Shown: positions 19,463 through 42,167 of the stretch, in pieces
Layout: each line of letters begins with the position of its first letter
Numbering within the stretch: the stretch's first letter is position 1
Source: Mytilus galloprovincialis
Lineage: Eukaryota; Mollusca; Bivalvia; Mytilida; Mytilidae
Assembly (NCBI RefSeq): GCF_965363235.1
Contig: NC_134838.1
Span: 11,626,441 to 11,690,440 of the forward strand
Reading direction: 5' to 3'
Length of the DNA stretch: 64,000 nt
Notes under the pieces: model-generated
The model's database searches: none
Told to the model about the DNA's origin: nothing
Seen by the model: only the letters and a program-made list of their open reading frames with translations
Made by a program: the position numbers and the translations under genes

Positions 19463-20099
19463 TACTATATAATACAAAGAACCGTTTAAGTCTTTCGCCA
19501 AAAATACTATCAATTTCTTTTTGTCATATGTAAACTTCCGTACCATTTCCTTCCAATCATGATCATTAAATTGAACTGTGAATTATTTCTTGGTACCTTC
19601 TTAATTCCTTTATAAGTCTTATGTAAACATAATAATGACAATAACTACTGTGAGCACAAGATTCACTGCACACTTTTAAAGTTCTGCTTCATCAAACATT
19701 AAAATGTGAACTTAAGTTTTGAGACTTTTTTAATCGGTTACACGCCATTATTCCGACAGCCCATTAGTCCGATAACCCATTAGTCCGACAACCCATTGCT
19801 CCGACAGCCCAATACTCCGATAACCCATAAGTCCGACACTTATCAAGACAAGTATCAGGGTGTTAGGGTCAAATAAAATTTGTGTGTCTGTATTATTACT
19901 TTTAAATATGTAATAACATGTCTTAAAAAATAACTCCGTATATATAAAATAAGGCTTAGGTAGTTCGAATATATATACTCATTTCGAAATCTGTATATAG
20001 AATAGAACAGAAAAGAATATTTCATTTTCCAAATTAAAGGGTCTATAAAGAGCATATAAATCAAGAACAACGAGTGATAGTGCAAACTACTGATGATTC

Positions 20100-20492: not shown

Positions 20493-20534
20493 GATTGGGT
20501 CAACATTAAGACTTTACAATACTAGTATGATAAT

Positions 20535-20942
20535 ACCGCGCTGAAGTACGTCCATTATTCATAGTTCATTATTCATTATTCAATAATGAATAATGAAATA
20601 GTTCATTATTCACTATTCAATATTATAAAATGAATAATGAATAATGAAATGGTTTATGTTTCATTATTCAAATTGAAGCGGTGAATAGTGAAAAAATATA
20701 TAAAAATTGACTGTGACACTATAGCTATATCTTGATTCGAAATGACCATAAGACGGTTTACGGAGGACCTAAATGCCACAATATGCATAAAAATGAGGAA
20801 ATATAAAAAAGAAGATGTGGTATGATTGCCAATGAGACAAATATCCAGAAAGACCACAATGACACAGACATTAACAACTATAGCTCACCGTACAGCCTTC
20901 AACAATGAACAAAGCCCATACCGCATAGTCAGCTATTAAAGT
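20535..20942 (+). repeat. Left arm head of the 19.6-kb element
   Basis: Starts ACCGCGCTGAAGTACG, then nested 'TTCATTATTCATTATTC' palindromes (to about 20690), a unique AT-rich part, and a fragment of family S5 (20808-20940). The same order appears reversed at 39766-40175, so the S5 fragment was present before the arms were copied. Confidence 0.9.
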
Positions 20943-22385
20943 TTCCGCAACGAATATTAGAAGACCTTAATGCCAAAATACGCGTGAAAATTAAGAAATA
21001 GCCAATTTTGAATAATGAAATGGATATTTTGAATAATGGAATGAACTGCGGCGACCCTTTAGCCCCTATTATAGATAAACCTTATATCTCATTCGAAAGC
21101 TGATTACAAGAGGAACAAAATGTATATAGTCAATATGTTCCGCAACGAATATTAGAAGACCTAAATGCCAAAATACGCTTGAAAATTAAGAAATAGCCAA
21201 TTTTGAATAATGAAATGGATATTTTGAATAATGGAATGGAGTGCGGCGACCCTTTAGCCCCTAATTATAGATAAACCTTATACCTCATTCGAAAGCTGAT
21301 TACAAGAGGAACAACATGCTTATAGTCAATATGTTCCGCAACGAATATTTGAAGACCTAAATGCCAAAATACGAGTGAAAATTAAGAAATAGCCAATTTT
21401 GAATAATGAAATGGATATTTTGAATAATGGAATGGACTGCGGCGACCCTTTAGCCCCTAATCATAGATAAACCTTATACCTCATTCGAAAGCTGATTACA
21501 AGAGGAACAAAATTTATATAGTCAATATGTTCCGCAACGAATATTAGAAGACTTAATTGCCAAAATACGCGTGAAAATTAAGAAATAGCCAATTTTGAAT
21601 AATGAAATGGATATATTGAATAATGGAATGGAGTGCGGCGACCCTTTAGCCCCTAATTATAGATAAACCTTATACCTCATTCGAAAGCTGATTACAAGAG
21701 GAACAACATGCTTATAATCAATATGTTCCGCAACGAATATTAGAAGACCTAATTGCCAAAATACGCGTGAAAATTAAGAAATAGCCAATTTTGAATAATG
21801 AAATGGATATTTTGAATAATGGAATGGACTGCGGCGACCCTTTAGCCCCTTATTATAGATAAATCTTATACCTCATTCTAAAGCTGATTACAAGAGGAAC
21901 AAAATTTATATAGTCAATATGTTCCGCAACGAATATTAGAAGACTTAATTGCCAAAATACGCGTGAAAATTAAGAAATAGCCAATTTTGAATAATGAAAT
22001 AGATATTTTGAATAATGGAATGGAATGCTGTGACCGTTTAGCCCCTAATTATAGAGAAACCTTATACCTCATTAGAAAGCATATTACGAGAGGAAAAAAT
22101 GTATATAGTCAACATGTTCTGCAACGCATATTAGAGGAGTAACGAAGGACCTAAATATCGAAATACGCTTGAACATTGAGAAATAACTTATTTTGAATAA
22201 TGGAATGGACTGCTGCAACCCTTCAGTCCCTAAGCAAGGCAAAATTTATACACCAAATTAAAACTTATTGATAGAGGAACAAACTGAGTATAAATGATAT
22301 GTGCCGCAATGACCATTGTAGGGTTTACGGAGGACCTAAATGCCAAAATACCCGTGAAAATTAAGAAATAGCCAATTTTGAATAA
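20943..22385 (+). repeat. Left tandem array, about 196-bp units
   Basis: Unit starts ('TTCCGCAACGAATATTAG') fall at 20943, 21138, 21333, 21530, 21726 and 21922, with a more divergent unit near 22117 and a partial one after it. Landmarks within each unit are 'AATAATGAAATGGATATTTT', 'GCGGCGACCCTTTAGCCCC' and 'CATTCGAAAGCTGATTACAA'. The array resumes after insertions at 27454-27576 and 27908-28138. Confidence 0.92.
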
Positions 22386-22611
22386 CGCGGGTATGTTAAT
22401 GCTGTATTTTCAAAAAAATGAAAAAATGATACTTAAATTTCAACTTTTAATAAAAAGACTTTTTGACTCATTTATAGTGTAATTTGTTATATTTTTTAGT
22501 TTTGCTAGTATGTTGACAATATAAATTTTCGTTTTCAAAAATAACATTCTCAAATTATCACGTGGTTATCACGTGACACTCAGAATCTATTTATAAACGT
22601 GAAAACAGTAA

Positions 22612-22919
22612 ACTCAAAAGTGCTAGCGTGTAGACACTCTTTTTTTTCTAAGTAGTGTTATCTGTGGATAGCTTATATACTAAAGTATTAGAAAAGTGCT
22701 ACTCGCCTCCTTTGAATAAAAAGATTAATTAAATAAACGGAGATTTTCGACTGAATTGCGCCAAAAATACTATGACCTTCAGATATAACATCGTTTAACA
22801 CTTAAACGGTATAAACAACAAGAACCGAGTAGCAGTTTTCGTAAAATATTAATATTCAGCTTTCTGCAAGTTCATTTGAATCGAAATTTCATCATTTCTA
22901 CACGCTAGCACTTTTGAGT
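22612..22919. repeat. 308-bp inverted-repeat element
   Basis: Perfect 23-bp ends, beginning ACTCAAAAGTGCTAGCG and its complement. A second inner pair ('AAAAGTGCTACTCG' near 22693 and its complement near 22830) extends the hairpin. No obvious target duplication. Confidence 0.65.
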
Positions 22920-23256
22920 CAAAGTTAACTTGTTTCACAAGTTTTCGGGACCGTCATTATTTACAAACGCACAAGTGATTTTCAAAGGGAAGTAATTCTG
23001 TAATAAGAAATAAAAATTTCAGTCATCGGGAAATTGTTGCTGATCTTTATTTAAATGTACGTTTTGTTGCATTTTCTCCATAACCAATTTATTTAATAAA
23101 AGAAACAAAGTATATAAATATATATTTTACTCGGAGAATAGATCAGAATGATTATAATTACACATCGGCTTGGTATGAATACCCCTTTTCTTTCTGTTTG
23201 GTATTTTTTGGCAAAAAAATTATTTATTGAATTTTTCTACGGACACTGTAGCTTTA

Positions 23257-23538
23257 GGGAGCTACCATTTGATTTTTATGGGGGGGCTAGGATGAAAAAA
23301 TTTGTCCTGCATTTTTTTTTAGCTGAAATCTCTGTCCTGCCTTTTTATTTTTCACTCTGTTCGGTCCTGCCTTTTTTTTTTTAGTTTATCCTGACTTTTT
23401 TTTACCTAAATTGTCGTCCTGACTTTTTTTTTTTGCAAGTGTCTCATCCTGCCTTTTTTTTTTACTCAAAACTCCTGTCCTGCCTATTTTTTTCAAATTT
23501 CATCCTAGCCCCCCCATAAAAATCAAATGGTAGCTCCC
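23257..23538. mobile_element. PIF/Harbinger-type MITE, copy 3 (282 bp)
   Basis: Ends GGGAGCTACCATTTGATT and its complement with TTA on both sides (23254-23256, 23539-23541). The interior is the complement of the 'GGCAGGA' microrepeat seen at 16647-16946, so it sits in the opposite orientation. It lies within the 5.07-kb element and must be younger than it. Confidence 0.88.
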
Positions 23539-23541
23539 TTA

Positions 23542-26500
23542 TCTACCAATAAAACATGACCTCCGTGTATTCGCACAACAGTGTGGGAAGTGTTGTTAAA
23601 CACCATTCAATCACTCAGATAGTTCTTTGAATTGTGTTTTCTATTTTGTCAGATGAGGTGCCTCTCATGTTTGGGTTTTGCCTCTTGTAACAGTGTAAAC
23701 TGTCAGAGTGTACAATAAAATCTTGAATCTTGCTCATTCTTCATGTCAGACTCATACAGACCCATACACTGTACATCATTCAATCGTTGGTCACAGTGGC
23801 AATCACACCATATAGTAATGACAGCTTGGAATATATATATATTCAATGTCCTGCTTATTTTTCTCTCAATAAATCTAATTACCACATGATAGAAAACATA
23901 GTTTAAGAAAAATAGATGTTGATTTCATAGAAAAAAAACTTATGATGGTCAGAAAGTATGGGACTATTATATCAATTTATACCAAAGTCCAAGAGCTAAT
24001 GGAAATTTAATTATAAATCAAATCCTGCAACATTTTTATCACACATTCCCGATATTCCCTTTACACCATGTACACATTCAATGAACATTCTGTGTCTCAT
24101 TCAAGCATACTTAAAACTCCAGAATATGTATTTATTCTATGTATGTATAACTTGGACAACTGTTTTAATTATCTTTATTTTATTTATATCAATATAATAA
24201 TATATTATCTTTTACAATTGCAATGCTAACCATCAATAAGGTGTTTATTTTTAATGATAAACAGCATAAAACTAGCAGACATCAGTTTAAACCATGTTGA
24301 AAAGTTAAAGTTATAATATTTATCATCTTTTTAAGCTTCATGTAATTAGAAAATTGAATTAATATTGATAATTGCTCTTCAATAAGCATTATTTGGTACT
24401 TACTGAAAAGGTGGAGTGAATGTTTTTGTAAGGGAATATATGATCAGTGTCTAACAGAAAACCCTACAGGGCAATCTCAAAGTTGTTTCATTTAACCCAA
24501 GTAATCTAAAATATACATTCACTGATTGATTGATTTGAAATTGTGTATTAAATGCAGCCAACATGACTTATTTTACTTCATGTGGTATGTTTTTCAATGT
24601 GTCACAACTTACCATCATAACCAAATAACATAGAATTTTTTGTTTTTTGTTATAAAGCATGTTTCACAATCATAGAAATTAGGGAATGGGTGATCCTATT
24701 GATGAATCTATTTGCTAATTTGTATGTGAAAACATTTCATCATTCCTAACACTTTTGCTTTTGTTTCACATTATTATTAATAAACAATATTAATAATTTT
24801 GATTTAAATATTCCATGGAGCACAGCTAATTAATATACTTTATCCACCGAATGAAATCACAATTTGTAGATCTACACAGTGACACATTTATGAATTAAAA
24901 GTTCAGTGAAACATCCTCTCCTCAGTGATCATATTAATTAGGACACAATATCACATACTATATGTTCTCCACTTTCTTATAAATTTTTCCTTTGTTGATC
25001 ATGAACACATGTTCCAGAATCATTGCAGTTAGTTATTCATTCATTTCAACATATTTCCTTTTGTTGAACCTGCTTTTTAATACAGCAGCAAATTGTTTTT
25101 CTCACTTATTTTTAATACAGTCAATTAACTTCTACATTGTTCTAATTTGTATTCCTTTTAGCACAGTTAAAACAGTCTTGATTCCATTCATTTTGTCACA
25201 CACATATATATATATTAAGTAAAGAGTTGCCTTTTCAGGAAAATTAATTTTCTCTTTATATCTCAATGTACAGGAATCTGATAATATGAAAATAATATCC
25301 TTGTTTGGGTTTCATTTGTTGATCTTCCTTTGAATGACAAGTGCAGTCCTTGAGTCTTATTCATTTTATCAAATGTGCTATTGTATTGGAAGTGGCCATT
25401 GTTTCTCATTCATCTTAAAATTCTGCAAAAAAAAAAGGATATCATTATACACAATATAATTAATTTATAAGCCCCATTGCTATATATATGCATCTATTAC
25501 TTCAATCATTGTACTTGATTTACATGCTCTTAATGTGTCCTGTTATTAATATTTTGAACATAAAAATTATCTTATTCTTATTCTGATACAAAAATAGAAC
25601 TTCAATATAATCAAATTTTAGTAAGCTTAATAGCCTAAGCCCTTAGTATCAGCAGTGGTTGGTAAAACCAATAGTAAACTTACATGTTTGTAATAAAATA
25701 ATTGCCATGTTTGTTGACTTTCTTAACACATAAATATAATAGACAGATTAATCTAAACTCATAAGCAATTAATCTTTAAATAGCTTTCATATCACTTCAT
25801 GTGACTATAAAATAAGTGTCAGTTACAATAATATAATATTTGAATGCTTACATGATAATGCAGACTTCCTACATGTCAAGTCACTTGGAAGCAGTAAAAA
25901 AAAAACAGTGAATACAAATTCTGCAAAAGACAAATATAAAATTGCATAATCAAAACTTTAAAAGCAATAAACACACCAAAAGTTTTTTTTAAAACATGTA
26001 GGAAATAGGCAATAAAGGAGATATTTAAAAAAAAAAAGATTGATTGTTGGTTGCTTAATGTCCAGTGGCAAATATTTAAAAGACTGTCAGGTATTTAATC
26101 TGTATGATATTGAAATATTTATATCAATGTAGATTGACAAATTTTAAAGTCACTTATTTGTATTATAACATTTTAATAGTTATCAAGCAAATCCTACAAG
26201 TAATAAATAGTCTTAAAAATGTCAATTGAATGAAAGTGGTGATCAATTTAAAATTTTCATATCTTTAACTAAAAATTAAATTGGATAATATATTAACTGA
26301 GATGAGCAAATTCTCTCATTTTGTAAAATCTCAGTAGCCTGTTAACTGAAATATGACTTAATAGTACATTTTATTTGTTTGTACATGCATTTATAAATTC
26401 TTTGTCTTTGTGTGACTGGTATTTTCTCATAAACTTAGAAATGACAATGGATATATAAATACTATTTGTGAAACAAATCCAAGTTTTATATTTATAAAAT

Positions 26501-27042
26501 TCATGCTTAAATCACAAATTAAGTCAATTAAAAAAAAACAATGTCATTCTTTGTTTAACATGTAAAAACACCAACACTGGTCATTTGTGTGGGTGGTGTA
26601 TAAAAGTATAAAAAAAATTGACTAAGCCTAAGGAGAGGTGGACTTGGTATACATTTCCATTCTCAATTTTATTTTTATGATAATATAGGGGTGCACCCCT
26701 TACTACCAAAGTTAAGGAGCTATGTATACATAAATGAATAGTTTTAATTTATTGCATACACTAAACCAAGGGGGAATTAAATGGGGGGAGGGGTAATTAT
26801 TATGTAACAGTTGGCTTGGAAAAAGTCAAGTCTACTATAACTAATATTAAAACAATCTTTCTCCGAGCATTGTTTCCGTTTAGCCAACTTTATTGTTTCA
26901 TTGATTGATTCATAGGTCAATGGTTTTCGTCGTCGGTTATCGAAATACATGACGAATTATGAATTTTTTGATTCACTTCAACAAATTCAATAAGAAGAAA
27001 TGGGTACCGATGATAAAGAGTTACAATTTACAACGTATTTAC
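23542..27042. other. AT-rich body of the 5.07-kb element
   Basis: About 3.5 kb without a supported gene; composed largely of A/T-rich unique-looking sequence. The open frame at 24992-25222 is hydrophobic but carries no motif. Confidence 0.45.
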
Positions 27043-27144
27043 CTCAAAATGTATGCAAAATCCATCTTTCCATTGTGATTTCCATGTGCCGACTTCTTTG
27101 ACAAGGTGCTCAACAGCTGATGATAATGAGTGTGACGTGACAAG
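27043..27144 (-). other. Exon-like segment at the right end of the 5.07-kb element
   Basis: The minus strand is open for 34 codons (containing HLVKEVGTWKSQWKDG) up to a consensus-like donor TTTTGAG|GTAAATA (GT at 27041-27042). There is no in-frame ATG after the preceding stop. Base composition is less AT-rich than the rest of the element. It may be a captured host exon or a first exon of an old transposon gene. I do not recognise the peptide. Confidence 0.3.
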
Positions 27145-27576
27145 CTAAAAATTGACGTTGATGAATCTTAAGTTTTTGGCGATTTTCTTACTCAAAACTG
27201 TAAGTGTTCAAGGGAACAACGGTCATGTTTGAAGATATTGTTAATGTCGCAATGATGTTGTCGAAAAACAACAAGTTGATAAATCTTTGATCTCGGTGTA
27301 ACCAAAAAATCACCACTCCATAGCAAATTCTCCCAACGTCCGATTTAGCCAATCAAAATTCGTATAGTTTCGAAAATGACGTTATAGATGAGATTTCGAT
27401 GCAATCACCAAAAATCGTCAAAAATGATTTGAAACCGCATTAACCTACCCGCGAATGAAATAGATATTTTGAATAATGGAATGGAATGCTGTGATCCTTT
27501 AGCCCTTAATTATAGATAAACCTTATACCTCATTAGAAAGCTTATTACGAGAGGAACAAAATGTATATAGTCAAAT

Positions 27577-27907
27577 AAAATTGAGAAAGGAAATGGTGAA
27601 CATGTCAAAGCGACAACCACCCGACCATAGAGCAAACAACAGCCGAAGGCAACCAATGGGTCTTCAATGTAGCGAGAATTCCTGCACCCGTAGGTGTCCT
27701 TCAGCTGGCCCCTAAAATATGCATAATAGTACAGTGATAATGGACGTCATACTAAACTCCGAATTATACACAAGAAACTAAAATTTAAAATCATACAAGA
27801 CTAACAAAGGCCACAGGCTCCTGACTTGGGACAGGCGCAAAATTGCGGCGGGGTTAAACATGTTTATGAGATCTCAACCCTCCCCCTATACCTCTAGCCA
27901 ATGTAGA
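27577..27907 (+). repeat. Family S1 SINE-like repeat, inserted in the array
   Basis: Same landmarks as 2221-2536 and slightly longer at its 3' end ('CCTCTAGCCAATGTAG'). The array unit stops before it and resumes after it, so it is a later insertion. Confidence 0.8.
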
Positions 27908-28138
27908 ACATGTTCCACAACGCATATTAGAGGAGTAACGAAGGACCTAAATATCGAAATACGCTTGAACATTTAGAAATAGCTTATTTTGAATAATCGA
28001 GTGGACTGCTATGACCCTTCAGCCCCTAATTACAGATATGTTATACCTCAATCGAAAGCTTATCAAGAGAGGAACAAGAGGTATATACTAGTAGTCAATA
28101 TGTTCCGCAACGGATATTACAGGAGTAACAAAGGACCA

Positions 28139-28796
28139 AAACTCAAAAACTTAACTTTGACCACTGAACCATAAAAATGATGTCAAGGTCAGATGACACC
28201 TGTCAGCTAGATATGTACACCCTACAATCATTTCATACACCAAATATAGTAGACCTATTGCATATATAGTATAAGAAAAACAGACCAAAACACAAAAAAC
28301 TTAACTATAACCACTGAACAATGAAAATGAGGTCAAGGTCAGATGACACCTGCCAGTTGGACATGTACACCTTACAGTCCTTCCATACACGAAATATACT
28401 AGACCTATTGTTTATAGTATCTGAGATATAGACTTGACCACCAACACTTAACCTTGTTCACTGATCCATGAAATAAGGTCGAGGTCAAGTGAAAACTGTC
28501 TGACGGGCATGATGACCTTGCAAGGTATGAACATACCAAATATAGTTATCTTATTACTAATAATAAGAGAGAATTTAACATTACAAAAAATCTTAACTTT
28601 TTTTCTAGTAGTCACTGAACCATGAAAATGAGGGCAATGACATTGGACATGTGGCTGACGGAAAGTTCGTAACATGAGGCATCTATATATAAAGTTTGAA
28701 GCATCCAGGTTTTCTACCTTCTAAAATATAAAGCTTTTAAAAAGTAAGCTAACACCGCCGCCGCCGACGAATCATTATCCCTATGTCGAGCTTTCT
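28139..28796 (+). repeat. Interspersed repeat with about 160-bp inner units
   Basis: Related blocks with 'CCACTGAAC.ATGAAAATGA' and 'GGTCAAGGTCAGATGACACC' recur near 28158, 28317, 28455 and 28615, ending in a GCC/CCG microsatellite and 'CCTATGTCGAGCTTTCTGC'. It separates the left array from the Polinton fossil. No coding content. Confidence 0.65.
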
Positions 28797-29265
28797 GCAA
28801 CAAAAGAAAATTCACAGATAGAATAAACACAATGGATTTTACGATTACAAATATGTCTGATCAGAGATAGAATACGGCGGAAGAGGAAGAATTTCTGAAA
28901 AAAGTGGACGCTGTTACGGCCAAAGGAGAACACCGCTGCAATGATGAGGAAATTCTCAAATGGCAAGAAGTAGGGCAGGACTCAACCTGGATTGTCAAAG
29001 ATGTTGACACGAAGTAAAGGTCTGCAAAATTATAACCTTGTGCTCGAAAGGGGAAACTATTCGCACATGGGAATGTGAGAGATTAAACAAGCAGCTTACC
29101 ACCGTCTTGGCAAAGAGAGAGACCGATGGAGCTGGGCAGTTTGTGAGCTATGGGATTAAAAAATTCAGACACACCGGGTACGTTTCACGACTTTCTTATT
29201 TTTTCATAAGGATTGTAGGATTGAGAGTGTTAGGATATGTTTTGTAGGCCCCAAAACTGGGTCTG
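28797..29265 (+). repeat. Left inverted end of the Polinton fossil
   Basis: Matches 36040-36503 reversed, with indels and by eye roughly four in five bases identical. It carries remnants of a small gene recognisable by WECERLNKQLTT and ETDGA, whose counterpart in the right end reads WGCERLNKQLTT. Confidence 0.8.
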
Positions 29266-29324
29266 AAAACCAGTGAATTGGGGATGGGGGTTTTGGGGTT
29301 ACCTAAATTGATTTTTTTATTGTT

Positions 29325-29460
29325 AGGATAAAGACGAATCCAATAGTGAACATGGAGTTAGTAGTTGAAAACGTCAAAGCCCTGAGAGGTATAGCCAAAA
29401 TGAACCACCTTCGAGGGTATTCCCGGTTGAGGAAAGATCAGTTGGTTGAGAGGTGATAGA
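29325..29460 (+). pseudogene. SAP-like small gene remnant of the Polinton
   Basis: A short stretch with LRGYSRLRKDQLVE, resembling the SAP-type DNA-binding motif found in small genes of invertebrate Polintons and adintoviruses (recalled). Fossil; function not claimed. Confidence 0.5.
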
Positions 29461-29789
29461 AACGAAGACAAATCTTAAATTTCATCGTCGTCCCAAACCC
29501 CACACGAGGAAGGAGATTATCACCCAGACAAAACAACTTGGGTTGAAAGGGGTTAGCAGGCTGTCGATAGATCGGCTGCTAAAGAAGGTACAGGAAAAGA
29601 TTTGGGAAGATAGGAAAGCCATTGGGGATAACATTGAGGTACATTCGCCGAAGAAAGCCTTTAAAGATGTATTTACTACCTGGAATATGACCCCCATCGA
29701 CCTCCCTTGAGGTCTCTCGGGTGTCACGGGGGGAACTTATAGAAGATGGGCATTGTAAGGGGCAAAGCAATGTGATCATGCACTGTACC

Positions 29790-30575
29790 TTTAGATTAAT
29801 CCAACAGGTAAAGCAGATGAAGAGAACGAGAGATACTTTCACTCTGGAAACTAGATTTTCACCTCGGCCACGGACTTGGTTGAAACCCTTGAGGAGATAG
29901 ATGAAAAGATCGTAGAAAAGATTGCCCGGTGGACCTCTGACAAAACTAGGGAAATGGTGAATACTTCCTCGGTCCAGCGGGGGTGTATCCCTTCTCGAAT
30001 GTACCTTTCTTCTTGGTGATTCTGAAAATCGCGGTGGTTTAATGGGAGGTATGCTGCTGTAAAGGTTCCAATACAACTTGTTTTCATGCTCCTTATGACT
30101 TGCGGCATTAGGGACCATCTTGATAGCGGTGCTTGGTGGTATTGCACTGGCGAACAAGATCGTCCAGGACATCGATATAGGTGCGTGTGGAGTTGGCTGA
30201 AAAGTATTTGAGCATTTTCTCTTTCATGGTGCGGTTTCAACGTTTGACAATACTCGACTTATCTTCGTTCCCGGTGGAGTAGAGATCGATACCATGCTTT
30301 TGAAGCAGCTGATTTACATGTTTATTGTAAAACTCAGTGCCTTTGTCTGTACATAGCTTCTTGGGCACACCGCTTGGAAGGCATCCCGCACTATCACCCC
30401 CTTCCTGTTCTTGAGTGGTATCAGCCAGTCATATTTCGAGAAGACATCGATAATGCTCAGGATAAATATATTTCCCTTGATGTCCCTGGAGAAGTCACTC
30501 ATATCAACGAGGTCGGCCACCCAGGTCTCATCCACACCACCCACCGCTAAACAGCGTTTATGAAACTAACGTCGA
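29790..30575 (-). pseudogene. Polinton integrase remnant
   Basis: Retroviral-type (rve) integrase core: ETWVADLVDMSDFSRD and FILSIIDVFSKYDWLIPLKN at 30314-30544, then the downstream core around 30080-30180 and a C-terminal SH3/chromo-like part with IHPRWTEEVF near 29960. In Polintons this enzyme integrates the element. The frame is broken; treated as a fossil. Confidence 0.8.
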
Positions 30576-31050
30576 ACTGGTTTGTGCAACTCCTCAGCTA
30601 GCCCATCGGTCCAGCGAACAGTTTTTTAACACCCAGAACGAATCGAGCTTTGGTACCGATGATGGGTCCGACGATGCTGCAGTCTAAGCGTTCGTATGTG
30701 GTACAGTTGGGAATTGTATTAAGCGAGGCTAGCATAGCTTCGTCACAGATGGTGTTGCGTGCGGTTGTATCCTTGTGCTGGGCATGACAAAGATCGTGGT
30801 GATATGCTGCCTGGTCAACTTGAATAATGGGTTTTGACCAAGCCTTCGGGTGCCATCGGGAAGTAGTCGCTTTCTAAGTCTAGTCCCTCGCCCGGTGAAG
30901 TTGTGTCCGGGTACATGCATTTCCATGGGTAATCGATTGATTAGTTTGTTCATGAACCCTGTACCGGTTGTAGCAACAAACTGAGACTTCTTGGCATCGC
31001 ACACCTTGCAGTTGCCAACCTTTCTCCGTCGCCCGTTGCTGGTCATTACC
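30576..31050 (-). pseudogene. Polinton phospholipase-A2-like gene remnant
   Basis: Begins with a Cys-X2-Cys motif (CKVCDAKKSQFV), then MEMHVPGHNFTGRGTRL. In relatives this is followed by a parvovirus-type PLA2 core; here remnants of it can be seen. Broken. Lies immediately upstream of the integrase on the same strand. Confidence 0.65.
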
Positions 31051-31189
31051 TCGCTTGTGTTAACTGTGTCCGTCTTTCTATGACTTTCACGCAGAAAATC
31101 ATCGCTATGTTATTTTAATAAATGAACGTTGAAGACATTTCCTACAGTGCCAACGCTCCCACGAGGAGTAATCACTACCACCTACTTCA

Positions 31190-31790
31190 GCGATCGATAA
31201 GACGGTTGATCATTGGGAAATTGGACTGTGGTAAGACGACGCTGCTGAACAACCTATTCTTGCGCGATGGATGGCTCTGACTACAATCGATTGTACGTCT
31301 ATGGATAATCGCTTCACCAACCTATCTACCCGCTGTTGGAGCAAGCGCTGGAAAAAGGCCTCCCTAAAGAAGATATCGAGACCTCCTACAGTGCAAGGGC
31401 AAGTCACCCTACTCGTTAATCGATGTGGTCAACATCTTACCACCACCACGACACCCGAGTGGTATCGAGACTTTTTTTTTCGAGCAAGGGTACCAAACCC
31501 CCGAGAACTTGATCACAGCCGCAAGAACCTCATTGTGAACCTCATGGTGTTCGACGGCTTGATGCTGAGAAAACAGAACACGAGTGAAAACAACGTCGAT
31601 TGTTTCTACCTGTGCCAGAACTACTTCACACTGCCCCGCCAGTCGATCCGGGAGAATGCCAACTTCCCCTGCCTCTTTCAGCAGAATGATAAGAATATCG
31701 ACCACATCTGACGCGATCACTGCAACGATCTCACCAAGGAACAGTACAGTTTGACGCTCTGTCATGTGTAAGCATTGCTGGTCTAAGCCC
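31190..31790 (+). pseudogene. Polinton genome-packaging ATPase remnant (FtsK/HerA-A32 type)
   Basis: A Walker A-like segment IIGKLDCGKTTLLNN (about 31210-31255), a Walker B-region relative VNLMVFDGLML (about 31530-31565) and the typical downstream NVDCFYLCQNYFTLPRQS followed by RENANFPCLF. In intact relatives it drives DNA into capsids. Fossil with several breaks. Confidence 0.75.
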
Positions 31791-31799
31791 TATGGATTT

Positions 31800-32617
31800 G
31801 TAACCATCGATTTCACAAGCACCAATTAAATGAGTTCTTTGAGGTATAAGATAATATAAATAGATACTATCTGGACACAGAGGAACCCCAGCCCTGCAAG
31901 TTCGAATGGCCCTGTAAATGCAATTTTGAGTGGGTTCCATGTTGAAAATGCAGTTGCGTGATCCTTCGACCGATCTAAAGCGGTGGAGGTGATTTCAACG
32001 CATAGAACATTATAATAAGGTGGAGCGATTTTCTCAACCCCAATGCCCTGCCAAGACGATTTGAGGCCACCAGTGCATATACCCATGACACTTGAATCTT
32101 TCGAAAAAAAGGGATCCGTATCAGCTGTGTAATACCTTCATGCGCAACTCATTGATTAGGGGCGTTCACACCAACGCTTAGAGGCGTTCAACAGCATTCG
32201 ATCCTATTAGATAAATGACATTTATCAAGATTATCGACCCTAAACAGCGTGAGGCACTTGTCAGGGAGTTGCAAGACACCAAACGGAAGATTCAAGCCAG
32301 TAATATGCAGCATCGCCTCGACAAGATTGAACTTAGCCGGGACCTTTACAAGGTGTTCAAGCCTGTGGTTGAGGCTTAGCGAGAGGCAGCTTGACAGATC
32401 ACCAAAATGATCACAGACCTTCCTGCAACAGTGCCAGTACTCCCTCCTCCACCGCCCACTACTCATTGCACAACCTACAGAAACCATCATTGGAGCTCGA
32501 GCACAGCAGCATTTGCAACTCAGTATGACTACTTCCGCCGACCACACCTTTTGATTGCGATCTGAAAACGATGGTATCTTCATCAGAAGCTGACCAGTTA
32601 CTTTTGATGGCGATCAT
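31800..32617 (+). pseudogene. Degraded Polinton interval with a small helical gene remnant
   Basis: Bases about 32215-32400 encode a charged helical stretch (PKQREALVRELQDTKRK) reminiscent of a small gene that follows the ATPase in invertebrate Polintons. The rest (31800-32215) is too decayed to assign. Confidence 0.4.
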
Positions 32618-32998
32618 TTGTTCATGGATACTAGTAGTATAAAGTACAAAGGAACCCTTGGCCTCTGGGAAGTTATGGTGAAAAAGAAACAAAAATCGTT
32701 CGAGCACGACGACCTTGACGACTATGCAGAGATCCTGAAAGGTTCCGGTGATATGTATAAAGGCAATTCCATCTTTTCAAGAACCCCAAAGGCGAATAAG
32801 AATAACAAGTGGAAGGGAATCGTGTCCCACATTTACCAGAAGTATAAGTTTGGCAGTGATACAGCTGCACCTTACCGAGCACGAAATAATGGTGTGCGCA
32901 ACGAAATTGTGTCGATTTATATCCAAGCTATGAAAAAGGGTAGATATATCAGCACCAAAGAATATATGGCGCTTCATCATAATATATCCTATAAGTGA
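32618..32998 (+). pseudogene. Small conserved Polinton gene remnant
   Basis: Contains IKYKGTLGLWEVM, DDLDDYAEIL and NNKWKGIVSHIYQKY, a layout I recall from a small gene near the capsid genes of invertebrate Polintons. Function unknown. It sits directly between the ATPase and capsid regions, as in relatives. Confidence 0.5.
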
Positions 32999-32999
32999 A

Positions 33000-33300
33000 T
33001 GTTTGCAAATCAAGAAAGGTTACGACTGAAAGTACGCATACAGTGGTAGGGGACTGTTTTGCACAATCGCCAGTTTGGCTGGACGCATGTTTACTGCCTC
33101 TGCCACCAAAACCATAGGAAGTAAGGCCGTGAGTGCAAACACCAATGCAGCCTTGAGAGGTGTTGAAAAAGGGGGCCCAAAGCCGTCGACCATGTGGTTG
33201 ATAAAGTGATCCGCCCCCGAAAACTCAGAATGTCCACTCAACAGTCCAATGGTCAACCTGCAAACCGCAGCAAACCCAGTTGAACAACCTGATATCCGGT
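33000..33300 (+). pseudogene. Small Ala/Gly-rich Polinton gene remnant
   Basis: Encodes a GLFCTIASLAGRMFT-like hydrophobic start and a Lys/Arg-rich end, resembling a minor virion-type protein placed just before the major capsid gene in Polintons. Assignment rests mainly on position. Confidence 0.4.
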
Positions 33301-33359
33301 TCTGGCATTGCTACCATCCACGACTTTGTGCAGCGCTATAAATAAATACATATATTATA

Positions 33360-34620
33360 CATCCTTATAATCACCGAAGGGTTGATCTTCGACGAAAGTC
33401 TCCAAAAATATAAGGTTCACGAATACGAACCTCAAGCTGGTGCCAACCTGAATAATTCAGGTGAGATCCGAATCAACATCGAAACCCAAGACTTGTTCCT
33501 CCATCCCGCTGAAAGTTATCTCTTGGTAGAGGGGCGACTGTAAAAGAACCACGGTAGTGCATATGCTAATGCAGATCTAGTGTCTCTCATTCACAATGGA
33601 ATCATGTATCTCTTCAAGACTATCAGTTACAATTAATGCAAGCTCTCATGCCAGCTGACCCAGTCGTTGCCATCACTGTGCTGAGAATGTTGATTTATCC
33701 CAACAATTTCTCCAAATCCCAAGGTCTTAACTAGCTGTGGTACAAAGATTCATCTACCGAAGCCAAGGCCGAAAACACCTGCTTTGCAGCACGTCATGGG
33801 TATATTATCACCAAGCCCGCCAATAAAAGGATCGTTTTCATTCACCATACCCCTGAGACATATTTTCGGCTTTGCAGATGATAACAAGATTGTGTATAGA
33901 TTCAAGCACGAATTGTCACTCGTGCGCGACTCGGACGACAATGCTGTCCTGCTGCTGCCGTCAACGACGTGGCGAAAATCAATCTGAGTAAGATCTCTTG
34001 GTTTGTTCCTCACGTCCTTCCTTCCTTCCGATAAAAAAAAACTGCGGTTGTAAAAGACCATCCAAAGCAAGAGTAAGATCGATTGTGGTTTCCGAATACG
34101 ACAGTGTGATTCTACAAGTGTTACCTAAACCTTACAGTTCCACTGGCGTTTGTCTGCCAAGAGCGGTCGAGAGAAACCAAGATACATCATCGCAGCCTTT
34201 CAGACCGGTAAAAGTACGATCGAACTCAAAATGAAGCCGTGTTCGACCACTGCCGGTTGCGAACTATCTACGTGACCCTCAACGCAGAACGCTACCTGGC
34301 GGTAGACTTCAATGCCAGTTTCACACAAACCAAGATCGCCAGAGAGTACAAGAATGTCGCAGAAATCGAACTATTTCAACATGGACCGTTTTATCAGCAA
34401 CTGCAACATTAACCCCTCCGATTTCGTCGATCTGTATCTACTGTTTGTCATTGATGTGAGTCACCAGTCCATTTGAATCCGATAGTCAGAAGATGAACGT
34501 CGTGTACAAAGAGTAAAATAAATGGATAAAATTCACCTACAAGTAACTCCTCTTTGCCAGCCGCCCTGCCGAAGTCTATGCGATCGTTGTGATCAACAAC
34601 TGAGAAGTATGACGGTATCG
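33360..34620 (+). pseudogene. Polinton major capsid protein remnant (double jelly-roll)
   Basis: The N-terminal region shows VHEYEPQAGANLNNSGEI and TQDLFLHPAESYLLVEGRL, close to the start of invertebrate Polinton major capsid proteins as I remember them. Later pieces such as LSKISWFVPHVLPS and IRQCDS follow in the right order. Fossil; several breaks. Confidence 0.75.
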
Positions 34621-34659
34621 AAGAGTGGAAGCAAAATATGTGACAATTGTGTATCATAA

Positions 34660-35445
34660 ATAAATGGATAACACATGCTTGCAGCAATTACTAAAATCAC
34701 CAACCCAAGCATGGGTTTTCCTTCATCGTTTCTGGAAACGATATCCAAATTCTTACCCGGTTCAACCCCCACTGCAACTCAAGGAATCCAAGACCTACGA
34801 GATGGCATTGATAAATCTGAAAACCAATAATTCCACCCCTAACATTCAAATGTATACAGGTAACCATTCCTTCCGCTACTCTCCCGATGATGGTGCCAAC
34901 TGGTTTTCCATCGCACTGAGCACAGGTTCCTATGACATCGAAGACATCAACAATGAAATCCAGCGACAGCTACGGCTCAACAAACACAAAACGAAGATCA
35001 TCATCGATGACAAACGGGCGACCCTAAAGCAACACTGACCCTCGCCAAACTCTATCAAGTAGACTTCAAAGTTGTCAATAACATCAACACCGTCTTGGGA
35101 TCCAAGTGGCAGATTTACACGTTCGGTATGATCACAAACGGTTATACAGAAGGGAAGCACATTGTAAATATCAGAATCAACAGCATTCTGGTGAATGGTG
35201 ATATCAACCATGAAGTTATGTAAATGGTACACATCAGTCTTCAATCTACAGCTTTTTTTCCCGCAGACGGTCCTGGTATGAAAATCATTCAAACCTCTAA
35301 GCACCTGTTGGTAGTATACTTGCCAGTGATCTTGCGAACCAGCAATCGCATGCAAACATATCTCAACGATCAAGACGGTAGGCTCATCGATCTCAGAGGT
35401 GAACATCTCACTATCCGTTTTCATCTTCTTGCGTTTACACAGTGA
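34660..35445 (+). pseudogene. Polinton penton-like (minor capsid) gene remnant
   Basis: Shows YEMALINLKT, FRYSPDDGANW, GSYDIEDINNEIQRQL and, near its end, IDLRGEHLTIRFHL. This layout recurs in a gene next to the major capsid gene in cnidarian and mollusc Polintons; penton identity is my best guess. Fossil. Confidence 0.6.
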
Positions 35446-35885
35446 ATCCCAGTGGCAACGGTCTCTACCTCAAATCCCCAAACGCCCGGATTACCTATGG
35501 GTATGGACTCTACTTGGAGCGTGGTCAGAAATTCCACGACGGAGCCGTTCTGATCTTATATTTAGATGCTTACAGTCCCTTCAAAAACATTGCCCTCCTC
35601 GGTATGCTCCTATAAAATAAATGAACGATTTAGATTCTTGGTACCGACAATGTGTGTCGAATCAACTCGATGCAGAAATTTGAAGGTATCAAACTACCTT
35701 GAATGCCTATAAACGTCTGGAAAAAGCTGTATCTGTAGCACTGGGTGCTTGTTTTGTGGTTAGTTTGGTGTTAACCAGTAGTACCCTGGGTTCAGCTTTG
35801 ACCGGTACAGGTCTTATAGCCACCCTTCCTAGCTTGTTTGAATGCTACCACCGTAATGGATCTCACACTAATTTCTAGGCATGTA
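35446..35885 (+). pseudogene. 3' structural-type small gene remnants of the Polinton
   Basis: First a segment with GLYLKSPNARITYGYGLYLE, then one with a hydrophobic stretch (ALGACFVVSLVLTSSTLG) that could have been a membrane segment. Both recur, from memory, near the end of invertebrate Polintons. Functions unknown. Confidence 0.4.
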
Positions 35886-36039
35886 ACAAAAAAAAAGAAA
35901 CACCACGATACCTTGCGATTGCCCCAGTCCAAAAAAGTCCTTGGTTGAGCAATGTATCAGCTCTGCTTTAGCTAATGATGAACAGTTCTATGATGCCGAG
36001 TTTGGGAAAGTCGTCACCTGCCTCAAAAACTCAATTCAA

Positions 36040-36503
36040 TGGTTTTAGACCCGATTTTCAGGCTTAAACAACATATCCTAACACTTCCAATCATATCGTC
36101 CTTATCAAAAATATAAAAGCCTTGGTAATCATAGCCGGTGCGCCTGTTTTTTTTCATCCCATAGCTCACGATTTGCACTGCTCCATCGGTCTCTCTCTTT
36201 GCCCCGACGGTTGTCAGCTGTTTGTTTAGTCTTTCACATCCCCAAGTGCGGATATTTTTCCGTGTCCGGCACAAGGTTATGATTTTTGCGAACCCACATT
36301 TCGTGTCCACTTCGTGTCAACATCTTTAATGTCTTTGACAATCCAGGGTGAGTCCTGACCTACTTTTCGCCATTTGAGAGTTTCCTCATCAGTATTTTCC
36401 AAAATTTCTACCTCTTGCGCCATATTCTCTCTCTGATCAGACATACTTGTAATCTTACAATCCATTGTGTTTACTATCTGTGGATTTTTCTTGGTGTGTT
36501 TTC
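36040..36503 (-). repeat. Right inverted end of the Polinton fossil
   Basis: Reverse-strand counterpart of 28797-29265. It carries remnants with WGCERLNKQLTT and, further out, EETLKWRKVGQDS. The 36504-36650 stretch beyond it is C-rich on the plus strand and has no counterpart on the left; it may be the outermost part of the original end. Confidence 0.8.
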
Positions 36504-36649
36504 TTTCTTCCACAAAGATACATTTTCCCCCGACCCCAACCCCTAATTTTTTCCCTTCAACCCCAACCACCCACGTTTCCCCCTCTTAACCTCGTCAACG
36601 AGCGTGCAAGATTTTCGGATTTTTCGGTCCGGTCCCAGCAGAAATTCCC

Positions 36650-39600
36650 CTCAAAATGTTCACGCATATTTCGATATTTTAGTCCTTCGTTACTCAACGG
36701 AATAAATTGACTATATACCATTTGTTCCTCTCTTTATAAGCTTCCGAATGAGGTATCAGGTAGATCTGTAATAAAGGGCTGAAGGGTCACAGCATTCCAT
36801 TCCATTATTCAAAATATCCATTTCATTATTCAAAATTGACTGTTTCTTATTTTTCACACCAATTTTGGCATTTAAGTCCCCCGTAACCCCTCAAATGGTC
36901 ATTGCGGCACATATTGTTTTTTTTTCTCAATTTATTCATCTATTATTTCGACATTTAAGTCCGTCGTTACTCTTTTAATATGCGTTGCAAGTCTATTCCA
37001 TTATTAAAAATTGGCTATTTCTCAATGTTGACGCGTATTTCGATATTTAAGTCCTTCGTTACTCCTCTAATATGCGTTGCGGAACATATTGAATATAAAC
37101 ATTTTATTCCTCTTGTAATCAGCTTTCGAATGAGGTATAAGATTTATCTATAATTAGGGACTAAAGGGTCGCCGCAGTCCATTCCATTATTCAATATATC
37201 CATTTCATTATTCAAAATTGACTTTTTCTTAATTTTCACGCGTATTTTGGCAATCAGGTCTTCTAATTATCGTTGCGGAACATATTGACTATATACATTT
37301 TGTTCCTCTTGTAATCAGCTTTCGAATGAGGTATAAGATTTATCTATAATTAGGGGCTAAAGGGTCGCCGCAGTCCATTCCATTATTCAAAATATCCATT
37401 TCATTATTCAAAATTGGCTATTTCTTAATTTTCACGCGTATTTTGGCATTTAGGTCTTCTAATATTCGTTGCGGAACATATTGACTATAAGCATGTTGTT
37501 CCTCTTGTAATCAGCTTTCGAATGAGGTATAAGGTTTATCTATAATTGAGGGCTAAAGGGTCGCCGCACTCCATTCCATTATTCAAAATATCCATTTCAT
37601 TATTCAAAATTGGCTATTTCTTAATTTTCATGCGTATTTTGGCGTTTAGGTCTTCTAATATTCGTTGCGGAACATATTGACTATATTTATTTTGTTCCTC
37701 TTGTAATCAGCTTTCGAATGAGGTATAAGGTTTATCTATGATTAGGGGCTGAAGGGTCGCTGCAGTCCATTCCATTATTCAAAAGGTCTTCTAATATTCG
37801 TTGCGGAACATATTAACTATAAGCATGTTGTTCCTCTTGTAATCAGCTTTCGAATGAGGTATAAGGTTTATCTATAATTAGGGGCCAAAGGGTCGCCGCA
37901 CTCCATTCCATTATTCAATATATCCATTTCATTATTCAAAATTGACTTTTTCTTAATTTTCACGCGTATTTTGGTAATCAGGTCTTCTAATAATCGTTGC
38001 GGAACATATTGACTATATACATTTTGTTCCTCTTGTAATCAGCTTTCGAATGAGGTATAAGATTTATCTATAATTAGGGGCTAAATGGTCGCCGCAGTCC
38101 ATTCCATTATTCAAAATATCCATTTCATTATTCAAAATTGGCTATTTCTTAATTTTCACGCGTATTTTGGCATTTAGGTCTTCTAATATTCGTTGCGGAA
38201 CATATTGATTATAAGCATGTTGTTCCTCTTGTAATCAGCTTTCGAATGAGGTATAAGGTTTATCTATAATTGAGGGCTAAAGGGTCGCCGCACTCCATTC
38301 CATTATTCAAAATATCCATTTCATTATTCAAAATTGGCTTTTTCTTAATTTTCACGCGTATTTTGGCATTTAGGTCTTCTAATATTCGTTGCGGAACATA
38401 TTGACTATATTTATTTTGTTCCTCTTGTGATCAGATTTCGAATGAGGTATAAGGTTTATCTATAATTAGGGGCCAAAGGGTCGCTGCACTCCATTCCATT
38501 ATTCAATATATCCATTTCATTATTCAAAATTGACTTTTTCTTAATTTTCACGCGTATTTTGGCAATCAGGTCTTCTAATAATCGTTGTGGAACATATTGA
38601 CTATATACATTTTGTTCCTCTTGTAATCAGCTTTCGAATGAGGTATAAGATTTATCTATAATTAGGGGCTAAAGGGTCGCCGCAGTCCATTCCATTATTC
38701 AAAATATCCATTTCATTATTCAAAGTTGGCTATTTCTTAATTTTCACGCGTATTTTGGCATTTAGGTCTTCTAATATTCGTTGCGGAACATATTGATTAG
38801 CATGTTGTTCCTCTAGTAATCAGCTTTCGAATGAGGTATAAGGTTTATCTATAATAGGGACTAAAGGGTCGCCGCAGTCTATTCCATTATTCAAAATATC
38901 CATTTCATTATTCAAAATTGGCTATTTCTTAATTTTCACGCGTATTTTGGCATTTATGTCTTCTAATATTCGTTGCGGAACATATTGACTACATACATTT
39001 TGTTCCTCTTGTTATCAGCTTTCGAATGAGGTATAAGGTTTATCTATAATAAGGGCTAAAGGGTCGCCGCAGTCCATTCCATTATTCAAAATATCCATTT
39101 CATTATTCAAAATTGACTTTTTCTTAATTTTCACGCGTATTTTGGCAATCAGGTCTTCTCATATTCGTTTTGGAACATATTGACTATATACATTTTGTTC
39201 CTCTTGTAATCAGCTTTCGAATGAAGTATAAAGTTTATCTACAATTAGGGGCTGAAGGGTCGCCGCAGTCCATTCCATTATTCAAAATATCCATTTCATT
39301 ATTCAAAATTGGCTATTTCTTAATTTTCACGCGTATTTTGGCATTTAGGTCTTCTAATATTCGTTGCGGAACATATTGATTATAAGCATGTTGTTTCTCT
39401 TGTAATCAGCTTTCGAATGAGGTATAAGGTTTATCTATAATTAGGGGCTAAAGGGTCGCCGCACTCCATTCCATTATTCAAAATATCCATTTCATTATTC
39501 AAAATTGGCTATTTCTTAATTTTCACGCGTATTTTGGCATTTAGGTCGTGTAATATTCGTTGTGGAACATATTGACTATATACATTTTGTTCCTCTTGTA

Positions 39601-39765
39601 ATCAGCTTTCGAATGAGGTATAAGATTTATCTATAATTAGGGGTTTAAGGATCGCCGCACTCCTTTCCATTATTCAAAATATCCATTTCATTATTCAAAA
39701 TTGGCTATTTCTTTTTTTTTTCACGCGTATTTTGGCATTTAGGTCTTCTAATATTCGTTGCGGAA
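36650..39765 (-). repeat. Right tandem array, about 196-bp units, three-unit higher-order period
   Basis: About fifteen units, inverted relative to 20943-22385. Unit types differ in two linked words: A has 'CAATCAGGTCTTC' with 'TATATACATTTTG', B has 'CATTTAGGTCTTC' with 'ATAAGCATGTTG', and C has 'CATTTAGG' with 'TATATTTATTTTG'. The order runs A-B-C repeatedly, with A units near 37250, 37980, 38570 and 39150. One unit near 37665-37800 is shortened. No coding content. Confidence 0.88.
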
Positions 39766-40175
39766 CCTTTAATAGCTGACTATGCGGTATGGGCTTTGCT
39801 CATTGTTGAAGGCTGTACGGTGAGCTATAGTTGTTAATGTCTGTGTCATTGTGGTCTTTCTGGATATTTGTCTCATTGGCAATCATACCACATCTTCTTT
39901 TTTATATTTCCTCATTTTTATGCATATTGTGTCATTTAGGTCCTCCGTAAACCGTCTTATGGTCATTTCGAATCAAAATATAGCTATAGTGTCACGGTCA
40001 ATATTTTTTATATTTTTTTCACTATTCACCGCTTCAATTTGAATAATGAAACATAAACCATTTTATTATTCATTATTCATTTTTCAATATTGAATAGTGA
40101 ATAGTAAACTATTTCATTATTCATTATTGAATAATGAATAATGAACTATGAATAATGGACGTACTTCAGCGCGGT
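39766..40175 (-). repeat. Right arm head of the 19.6-kb element
   Basis: Reverse complement of 20535-20942 with only about a dozen differences by eye, including the S5 fragment and the ATTATTCA palindromes, ending CTTCAGCGCGGT at the 9-bp duplication. Confidence 0.9.
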
Positions 40176-40666
40176 TATGATAATATTATATTTATAGCAC
40201 CATACGCCTCAGTCAGAATCGGAGCCAAAACAAAATAGAAAAAAACCTCAACTAACACATTGATATCAAATAACAATCCTTATCAAGGCATGCACTACAT
40301 AATTCAAAAGAACTAACAATATAATAATCATTTTTTAGTAAAGTTTTCTTGTGTTATTAAACATCGAAGATTTATTTAACTTTTTAAAGTTCTGACATGT
40401 GCTAGATATATGCTAAAAGAGTTCCTCCCTCAAATTATTATGAAGTGAGCATTCGATTGAAAAATGACGCTCATCCTCAACTTTTCAGCTGTACAATACG
40501 ATTTTTTGAGTATATGACATTTTCAATTCTTAATGTAATGGGTGAGCACCGATTCTTAATTAGCATATGAAGTACCTTTCTTAAAATCGATATCTAAATA
40601 TTTTTCTTCTTGAACACAATCTTTAAATGAAAAATAAGTGTCAAGTTTGCCATAAAACACATAATG

Positions 40667-41581: not shown

Positions 41582-42167
41582 AATGTACTAAGTTTTCACA
41601 ATTAGACAATTTGACAAAGACACAAGCAGGACAAGAATGTCGCACATTGTCTTAGATTTCTTACCAGTCAAATTTGCGTTATTTCTATGTCATATACAGT
41701 CACTGACCCGGCCGATATCACTTTTCCTCATGACTATTTTAAGTAGAAGTTGCCGAAATGTTCTTGTCCGTCATATTTGTCTTAATACGACCGCAAAACT
41801 TTTTTTTAGATATCGTATAATGGTATTATGTCGTCGTCTGTGTCGTCTGCGTCGAGGGTAAGGACTGAGAAGTTGAAACAAGCATGTGTTTCAACTCCAA
41901 TATTATGAGACAAATATCCCTCATGGACAGAATGATTGGAATCAAAACGGACAACCCCAAATATTAAAGAGAACAGAGTTGGTCTTTTTAGAGAAAATTT
42001 TCCCAAACACACAAGACTGATGCATTGTCGGAATAATGGGCTGTCGGAGTAATGGGCTGTCGGAATAGTGGGCTGTCGGAGTAATGGGCTGTCGGAATAA
42101 TGGGCTGTCGGAGTAATGGGCTGTCGGAATAGGGGTTGTCGGACTAATGGGATGTCACCTTTTAATC

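What the first reader, a model, noticed from the sequence alone, without database searches (positions are those of the whole stretch)
20526..40184. A 19.6-kb element with satellite-array inverted arms and an exact 9-bp target duplication
The two ends (ACCGCGCTGAAGTACG) are mirror images over about 410 bp and continue into inverted arrays of about 196-bp units; the flanks are exactly TATGATAAT on both sides. A mobile element whose arms are mainly a satellite array, spanning nearly 20 kb, would be unusual and may be undescribed. It offers a route by which satellite arrays could be scattered through a bivalve genome.
Basis: partly seen in the sequence, partly recalled or inferred. Interest (0 to 1): 0.88.

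Follow-up and report, generated by a model that had tools for sequence, protein, structure and literature searches.

The report
Satellite-armed transposon carrying dead virus
A mussel-like genome carries what are apparently hundreds of copies of a huge jumping element whose two arms are satellite DNA and whose middle, in most copies looked at, is the broken remains of a virus-like element, showing one way that satellite DNA and viral wreckage can be scattered through an animal genome.

Summary
Confirmed and extended. The window element (20535-40175) has ACCGCGC ends, 408-bp termini 97.8% alike, inverted 196-bp arrays and an exact 9-bp duplication. Its own genome holds 605 such ends. Of 29 end pairs tested, 23 have exact and 25 near-exact 9-bp duplications; mispaired controls gave 0 of 5581. 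Empty sites exist. The core probably did not drive the movement. An intact-looking Polinton of the same genome has AGTAGT ends and a 6-bp duplication. The integrase frame is broken in 13 of 13 cores where it could be read, but open in that Polinton. Three copies at different sites share one retrotransposon insertion inside the core. Best reading: a non-autonomous foldback transposon, probably Mutator-type like Tetris of Drosophila virilis, fused with a dying Polinton and amplified by a transposase acting in trans. That transposase was not found.

The parts
20526..20534 (+). left target-site duplication TATGATAAT
40176..40184 (+). right target-site duplication TATGATAAT
20535..20942 (+). left 408-bp terminal inverted repeat, begins ACCGCGCTGAAGTACG
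   Evidence: 97.8% to right terminus; 605 matching 26-bp ends in the genome
39768..40175 (-). right 408-bp terminal inverted repeat
20943..22386 (+). left array of 196-bp satellite units, last units degenerate
27454..27574 (+). continuation of the interrupted left array
   Evidence: 88% to 36707-36827
27901..28136 (+). innermost degenerate satellite unit of the left arm
36641..39767 (-). right array of 196-bp satellite units, about 15, inner ones degenerate; variant types recur in a three-unit order (by eye)
22387..27453 (.). later 5.07-kb insertion in the left arm with short inverted ends CGCGGGTA
   Evidence: interrupts a satellite unit
27575..27900 (.). later dispersed-repeat insertion (SINE-like by recall), also at 2220-2535 (87%)
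28137..28806 (.). block of a 149-bp dispersed repeat between arm and core; carried by several other copies
28807..29280 (+). inner inverted repeat, left: gene-like piece
   Evidence: 83% to the right copy without gaps
36032..36488 (-). inner inverted repeat, right: gene-like piece with 5 homologues, 2 of them named Mytilus edulis
29307..29707 (+). Rho_N-like piece and following open piece; possibly the start of a lost polymerase gene (recalled, not tested)
   Evidence: Rho_N 24.5 bits, cut-off 24.9
30111..30565 (-). integrase core (rve) in pieces; frame broken
   Evidence: weak rve matches, frames
30601..31109 (-). phospholipase-A2-like / DUF5679 gene in two frames
31122..31416 (+). P-loop-like pieces (weak)
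   Evidence: all matches below cut-off
33346..34473 (+). double-jelly-roll capsid gene in pieces
   Evidence: PF21738 27.0 bits, at the cut-off, and a second piece below it; copy L050 48.1 bits
34664..35612 (+). conserved gene in pieces, no Pfam match above cut-off; minor-capsid-like by position and recall only

Best explanation
It is a non-autonomous foldback DNA transposon. Its ends are 408-bp inverted termini beginning ACCGCGC. Its arms are inverted arrays of a 196-bp satellite of very variable length. In most copies sampled its middle is all or part of an 8.5-kb remnant of a Polinton (Maverick), a virus-like element with integrase and capsid genes. The fusion probably happened once, before the family spread, and the integrase was already broken in the master copy (inferred from shared defects). 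Copies then moved, each making a 9-bp duplication, using a transposase supplied in trans that needs only the termini (inferred; a Mutator-type enzyme is the most likely kind). The satellite units carry repeated copies of a motif related to the termini. They probably arose by amplification of subterminal sequence and change in number by unequal exchange (inferred). Shown: 9-bp duplications at independent sites, empty-site relatives, one shared right arm/core junction, shared breaks and a shared nested insertion in copies at different sites, and different ends on an intact-looking Polinton of the same genome. Not shown: the transposase.
For: 9-bp duplications: 23 of 29 pairs exact, 25 of 29 with at most one mismatch, mispaired control 0 of 5581. 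605 ends, control 0. Joined-flank query: 40 of 40 scored matches (of 346 candidates) run through the insertion point at 82-99%, best 99% over bases 1-310 of 320. Core segments in 16 of 20 stretches from other copies and in the C12 copy, collinear, mostly 86-97%. Right arm/core junction shared by 10 of the 11 stretches that hold any of 36491-36650. Integrase pieces lie in different frames in 13 of 13 cores where both were found (17 sequences given), with the same shift in 12 of 13, but in one 307-codon frame in an intact-looking Polinton. Six of six open-frame PLA2 copies picked share the same altered stretch. The same Pao/BEL insert at the same point sits in three copies with three different 9-bp duplications, 98.6-99.3% alike; the left junction was seen in all three, the right in two. 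That Polinton is 13,308 bp with AGTAGT ends and the 6-bp duplication ATTAAA. Tetris has TIRs with 220-bp tandem repeats, 8-10 bp duplications and no autonomous copy found.
Against: No intact transposase was found in the copies examined, several of which were read only in part. MULE domains occur in the genome (140 match stretches), but by eye none of those on C1-C4 and C5 below 61 Mb lies within 100 kb of the 100 zero-mismatch ends listed; the other 505 ends were not listed. 4 of 29 pairs lack a clean 9-bp duplication: one shows none, one has 8 bp, one is shifted, one has flanks that are reverse complements of each other. Many PLA2 copies at 60-65% keep a frame of 167 codons or more without stops, so that gene may not be simply dead. 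Termini of eight copies differ by only 1.6% on average (36 comparisons) while cores differ by about 5-8% or more from the window; those termini were the best matches to the window, which biases them low, but gene conversion or constraint is also possible. In L047 the integrase shift has the other direction. Only one Polinton had its ends read, and it is not the direct parent.
Confidence: 0.8

Rival explanations
1. A Polinton lineage of its own with unusual ends: the ACCGCGC termini, satellite arms and 9-bp duplications belong to the virus-like element itself and its own integrase moved it.
For: Core segments are in 17 of 21 other copies sampled, and 10 copies share one right arm/core junction.
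Against: An intact-looking Polinton of the same genome has AGTAGT ends and a 6-bp duplication. The integrase frame is broken in 13 of 13 cores where it could be read. Arms-only copies without any core segment also have exact 9-bp duplications (L033, and C2:17382039 of which L037 covers nearly all). Vertebrate Mavericks have 6-bp duplications and TIRs of 46-1,447 bp (passages of PMC8097293).
Confidence: 0.12
2. Segmental duplication or assembly artefact.
For: One copy (L034) has flanks that are reverse complements of each other, and the centres of L034 and L037 are 99.9% alike.
Against: Different 9-bp duplications (at most one mismatch) at 25 of 29 pairs on eight contigs, and empty-site relatives of the window copy.
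Confidence: 0.02
3. A true satellite into which unrelated transposons inserted; the arms are not part of a mobile unit.
For: The 196-bp units form long arrays, about 7.4 kb and 8.2 kb within single fetched stretches of the C12 copy.
Against: Arrays are inverted about the centre and bounded by the termini, and 15 of the 20 satellite clusters shown lie near listed termini (by eye).
Confidence: 0.03

Closest known systems
Tetris, foldback transposon of Drosophila virilis (PMC4079207, passages and section 17 read)
   Same: Long TIRs with an outer flanking domain and a variable number of tandem repeats (about 220 bp there, 196 bp here); variable middle; 8-10 bp duplications; no autonomous copy found; repeats also feed satellite arrays.
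   Different: Tetris has three structurally complete copies, TIRs up to 1,735 bp and a non-coding middle. Here about 600 ends, arms up to roughly 10 kb, and usually a Polinton-derived middle in a mussel-like genome.
Teratorn, piggyBac-herpesvirus fusion of medaka (PMC5601938, abstract and outline read)
   Same: A virus genome enclosed by the ends of a DNA transposon.
   Different: Teratorn retains transposition activity and, by its section titles, intact virus genes; here the integrase of the virus core is broken in 13 of 13 cores read and no working transposase was found.
Polinton / Maverick (PMC8097293, passages read)
   Same: Core genes: rve-type integrase, double-jelly-roll capsid; a PLA2-like gene as in Polintons of this genome.
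   Different: 6-bp duplications, AG- or AGT-rich ends and short TIRs in Polintons; 9 bp, ACCGCGC and satellite arms here; no polymerase match in the core pieces scanned.
Rehavkus and Mutator-like elements (PMC6446971, passages read)
   Same: 9-bp duplications (8-11 bp in MULEs), TIRs up to hundreds of bp, a minisatellite near one end in Rehavkus.
   Different: Their defining transposase (with PHD finger in Rehavkus) was not found here; that paper lists Rehavkus from arthropods and annelids only.
Helitron/Helentron-borne satellites of the oyster (PMC8268682, passages read)
   Same: Satellite units dispersed by a mobile element in a bivalve.
   Different: There short central arrays in rolling-circle elements; here long inverted arms of a TIR element with target duplications.

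Membership tests
Tetris-like foldback element | long TIRs with outer domain plus tandem repeats | tested here: met
Tetris-like foldback element | 8-10 bp target duplications | tested here: met
   23 of 29 exact 9 bp, 2 more with one mismatch, one of 8 bp, 3 not clean
Tetris-like foldback element | common descent with Tetris (shared terminal sequence) | not tested
   Tetris sequence not held; similarity is architectural
Mutator superfamily | MULE transposase encoded by an autonomous copy with the same termini | tested here: inconclusive
   MULE domains exist in the genome, none near the listed ends by eye; only 100 of 605 ends were listed
Rehavkus | transposase with PHD finger | not tested
   no model searched
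Polinton / Maverick | family B DNA polymerase | tested here: not met
   no polymerase match in the core pieces scanned; PF03175 places listed lie outside the paired elements (by eye)
Polinton / Maverick | rve-type integrase | tested here: met
   two adjacent rve matches below cut-off; 67-84% to one open frame of an intact-looking Polinton; broken here
Polinton / Maverick | double-jelly-roll capsid protein | tested here: met
   27.0 bits at cut-off in the window, 48.1 bits in L050
Polinton / Maverick | 6-bp target duplication and AG/AGT ends | tested here: not met
   9 bp and ACCGCGC here; 6 bp and AGTAGT in one Polinton of this genome
Teratorn-like virus-transposon fusion | transposase gene inside the element | tested here: inconclusive
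   none in the stretches read, and 8 of 19 long open frames were scanned; several copies were read only in part

The most novel reading that the evidence does not exclude
A single fusion of a Polinton virus with a satellite-armed, Mutator-type foldback transposon gave a hybrid lineage that first lived as a real virus-transposon chimera with swapped ends. It was later reduced to a passenger whose satellite arms, packed with copies of a terminal motif, compete for a host-resident transposase and so drive both virus remains and satellite DNA through the genome.
Probability: 0.2. Interest if true: 0.88.

Novelty: new variant of a known kind. Interest (0 to 1): 0.74.

Why it matters
It shows at sequence level, with target duplications and empty-site relatives, one route by which satellite arrays are scattered through an animal genome, and it records a fusion between a virus-like element and an unrelated transposon. 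Apparently hundreds of copies with variable arms in one genome would make it possible to measure how satellite arrays grow, shrink and homogenise after each insertion. A broken virus core that kept being copied is a clear case of viral wreckage moved in trans. In the nine paper searches made I saw no description of such an element; those listings show only the best-ranked papers, and most subscription papers and repeat databases are not in that library.

Tried and rejected
Polinton with its own TIRs nested inside the arms: looked for AGTAGTAGGG-type ends at the core edges. The two edge stretches gave one hit with up to two mismatches (28966, also seen in L043 and L036 in related form), against 28 in the whole window, so no support.

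Inner inverted repeat as a coding TIR kept by selection: differences by codon position in the best-aligned part were 12, 17 and 23 of 84-86 each; the two other stretches gave 10, 8, 3 and 1, 8, 8; inconclusive.

Relatives in viral contigs: capsid-side piece, integrase piece and a satellite pattern found nothing. Rfam found nothing. PHROGs gave only weak matches. A search of solved structures by sequence with an integrase piece gave only weak, unrelated matches. Passages of PMC11071296 held nothing on such an element.

Autonomous partner: no polymerase or MULE place listed fell inside the paired elements or close to the listed ends (by eye, on the contigs named above). The 1,242-bp centre shared by arms-only copies L034 and L037 has no open frame of 100 codons or more. 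Of 19 open frames of 170 codons or more in the copies, eight were scanned: Pao/BEL retrotransposon domains in three, a capsid domain in one, nothing in four. At least one more visible pair (C5:61145586 with C5:61166364) was not tested.

Selection on the PLA2 gene was planned but no dN/dS was computed; only printed the frames.

Full report
The observation. The two ends, their mirror-image relation and the exact 9-bp duplication are as stated. The terminal 408 bp of the two arms differ at 9 aligned positions. The arms continue as inverted arrays of 196-bp units. Unit comparisons show several variant types: by eye, on the left two types alternate and on the right three types recur in order, some copies 99% alike. 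The motif TTTTGAATAATG occurs 12 times in the left array in one orientation, 25 times in the right array in the other, once in the inner left array and nowhere else in the window. Parts of the unit match the terminal 408 bp (82.9% over 41 bp, E 2e-8, and shorter pieces), so the satellite is probably home-grown from subterminal sequence (inferred).

Anatomy of the window copy. The left arm was interrupted later by a 5.07-kb element (22387-27453, short inverted ends) and by a dispersed repeat (27575-27900); the array resumes at 27454 and 27901. Inside the arms lies a decayed gene set: a gene-like inverted repeat at each end of the core (83% alike; the right copy has five homologues, two named Mytilus edulis), a Rho_N-like piece just below its cut-off, integrase pieces with weak rve matches, a PLA2/DUF5679 gene, weak P-loop-like pieces, double-jelly-roll capsid pieces and further conserved pieces without a named domain. 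Of nine PLA2 relatives three are named Mytilus galloprovincialis and six are unnamed ENA sequences, so the genome is mussel-like; the genome itself is unnamed here.

Transposition. The genome has 1.385 Gb. The 26-bp end with up to two mismatches occurs 311 times on one strand and 294 times on the other, and the reversed pattern never. I paired ends from the listings (100 zero-mismatch places and the hits) and read the flanks of 29 pairs, 2.5 to 48 kb apart. 23 have an exact 9-bp duplication, 25 with at most one mismatch, and no mispaired control (0 of 5581) does. The four exceptions are listed under evidence against. A query of the two window flanks joined with one TATGATAAT was matched at 40 scored places (of 346 candidates), all running through the junction, the best at 99%: the element sits in a dispersed repeat whose other copies are empty at that point.

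What the copies carry. Of 20 stretches from other copies, 16 hold core segments and 4 do not; the C12 copy adds one more with core, giving 17 of 21. In the C12 copy the array fills nearly all of two fetched stretches of 8.2 and 8.8 kb. Core copies are collinear and fall into groups by shared changes. The right arm/core junction is the same in 10 of the 11 stretches that hold any of 36491-36650; the eleventh, L036, has only a third of it. That points to one fusion; the left junction could not be compared because of the 149-bp repeat block there. A capsid segment of the core had 191 candidates in the genome, of which 40 were scored, at 94-97% besides the window itself.

Why the core probably did not move itself. 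First, the two integrase pieces that overlap in the catalytic domain are in different frames in 13 of 13 cores where both were found (17 sequences given to the call), the direction of the shift being the same in 12; L047 differs. In an intact-looking Polinton of the same genome all three integrase pieces fall in one open frame of 307 codons. Second, six of six open-frame PLA2 copies picked share one altered stretch, also seen in the public sequence P0001. Third, a Pao/BEL insert at the same point is shared by three copies with three different duplications, left junction seen in three and right junction in two, and a 1.08-kb insert is shared by two. So cores already broken were copied to new places. 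Fourth, the Polinton at C5:26873272-26886579 has AGTAGT ends, a short TIR and the 6-bp duplication ATTAAA, as in vertebrate Mavericks (passages of PMC8097293). Fifth, arms-only copies have exact 9-bp duplications too.

Mechanism. A transposase in trans that binds the termini is the simplest account. The 9-bp duplication and the foldback shape point to the Mutator superfamily: passages of PMC6446971 give 8-11 bp for MULEs and 9 bp for Rehavkus, and Tetris was assigned there on the same grounds. This is inference by duplication length and architecture; no transposase gene was linked to these ends. Left/right terminal divergence was 0.3-3.0% for five copies and 8.5% for the oldest-looking one, L033; some insertions therefore look recent, unless gene conversion keeps the ends alike. 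That caution is real: the termini compared between eight copies differ by 1.6% on average while cores differ from the window by about 5-8% or more, though those termini were chosen as best matches and are biased low.

Results that do not fit well. Many PLA2 copies keep an open frame, and I did not test that gene for selection. The core shows no polymerase, so how and when it was lost is unknown. The partner enzyme is missing. L034 has mirrored flanks.

Placement. The parts are known: foldback elements with tandem repeats in their TIRs (Tetris), virus-transposon fusions (Teratorn) and bivalve satellites carried by mobile elements (Helitrons in oyster). The combination, its size and its copy number were not seen in the listings of the nine paper searches. 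I file it as a new variant of a known kind.

Noticed in passing
22387-27453: A 5.07-kb element with short inverted ends (CGCGGGTA...) interrupts a satellite unit of the left arm; inside it lie a small element with 23-bp perfect inverted ends (22612-22919) and a 42-bp perfect inverted pair (23256-23539).
   Followed up: partly
L094, L093, L095 (G000 C5:26873272-26886579): An intact-looking 13.3-kb Polinton with AGTAGT ends and 6-bp duplication; the genome has 125 polymerase B match stretches, many in long open frames, and 12 of the open PLA2 genes lie 3-4 kb from one.
   Followed up: partly
L034 (G000 C2:19006250-19012460): A 6.0-kb copy whose two flanks are reverse complements of each other; its 1,242-bp centre is 99.9% identical to that of another copy 1.6 Mb away (L037).
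   Followed up: no
19745-19838 and 42026-42156: Two 16-bp minisatellites of similar sequence in opposite orientation lie on either side of the element.
   Followed up: no
L017 (G000 C4:17449880-17450320): Two termini of the family in the same orientation 222 bp apart; the outer left flank equals that of copy L033 on another contig over the 14 bases compared.
   Followed up: no
28137-28806: A 149-bp repeat block at the arm/core border is carried by several copies and related repeats also occur beside the Polinton of C5.
   Followed up: no
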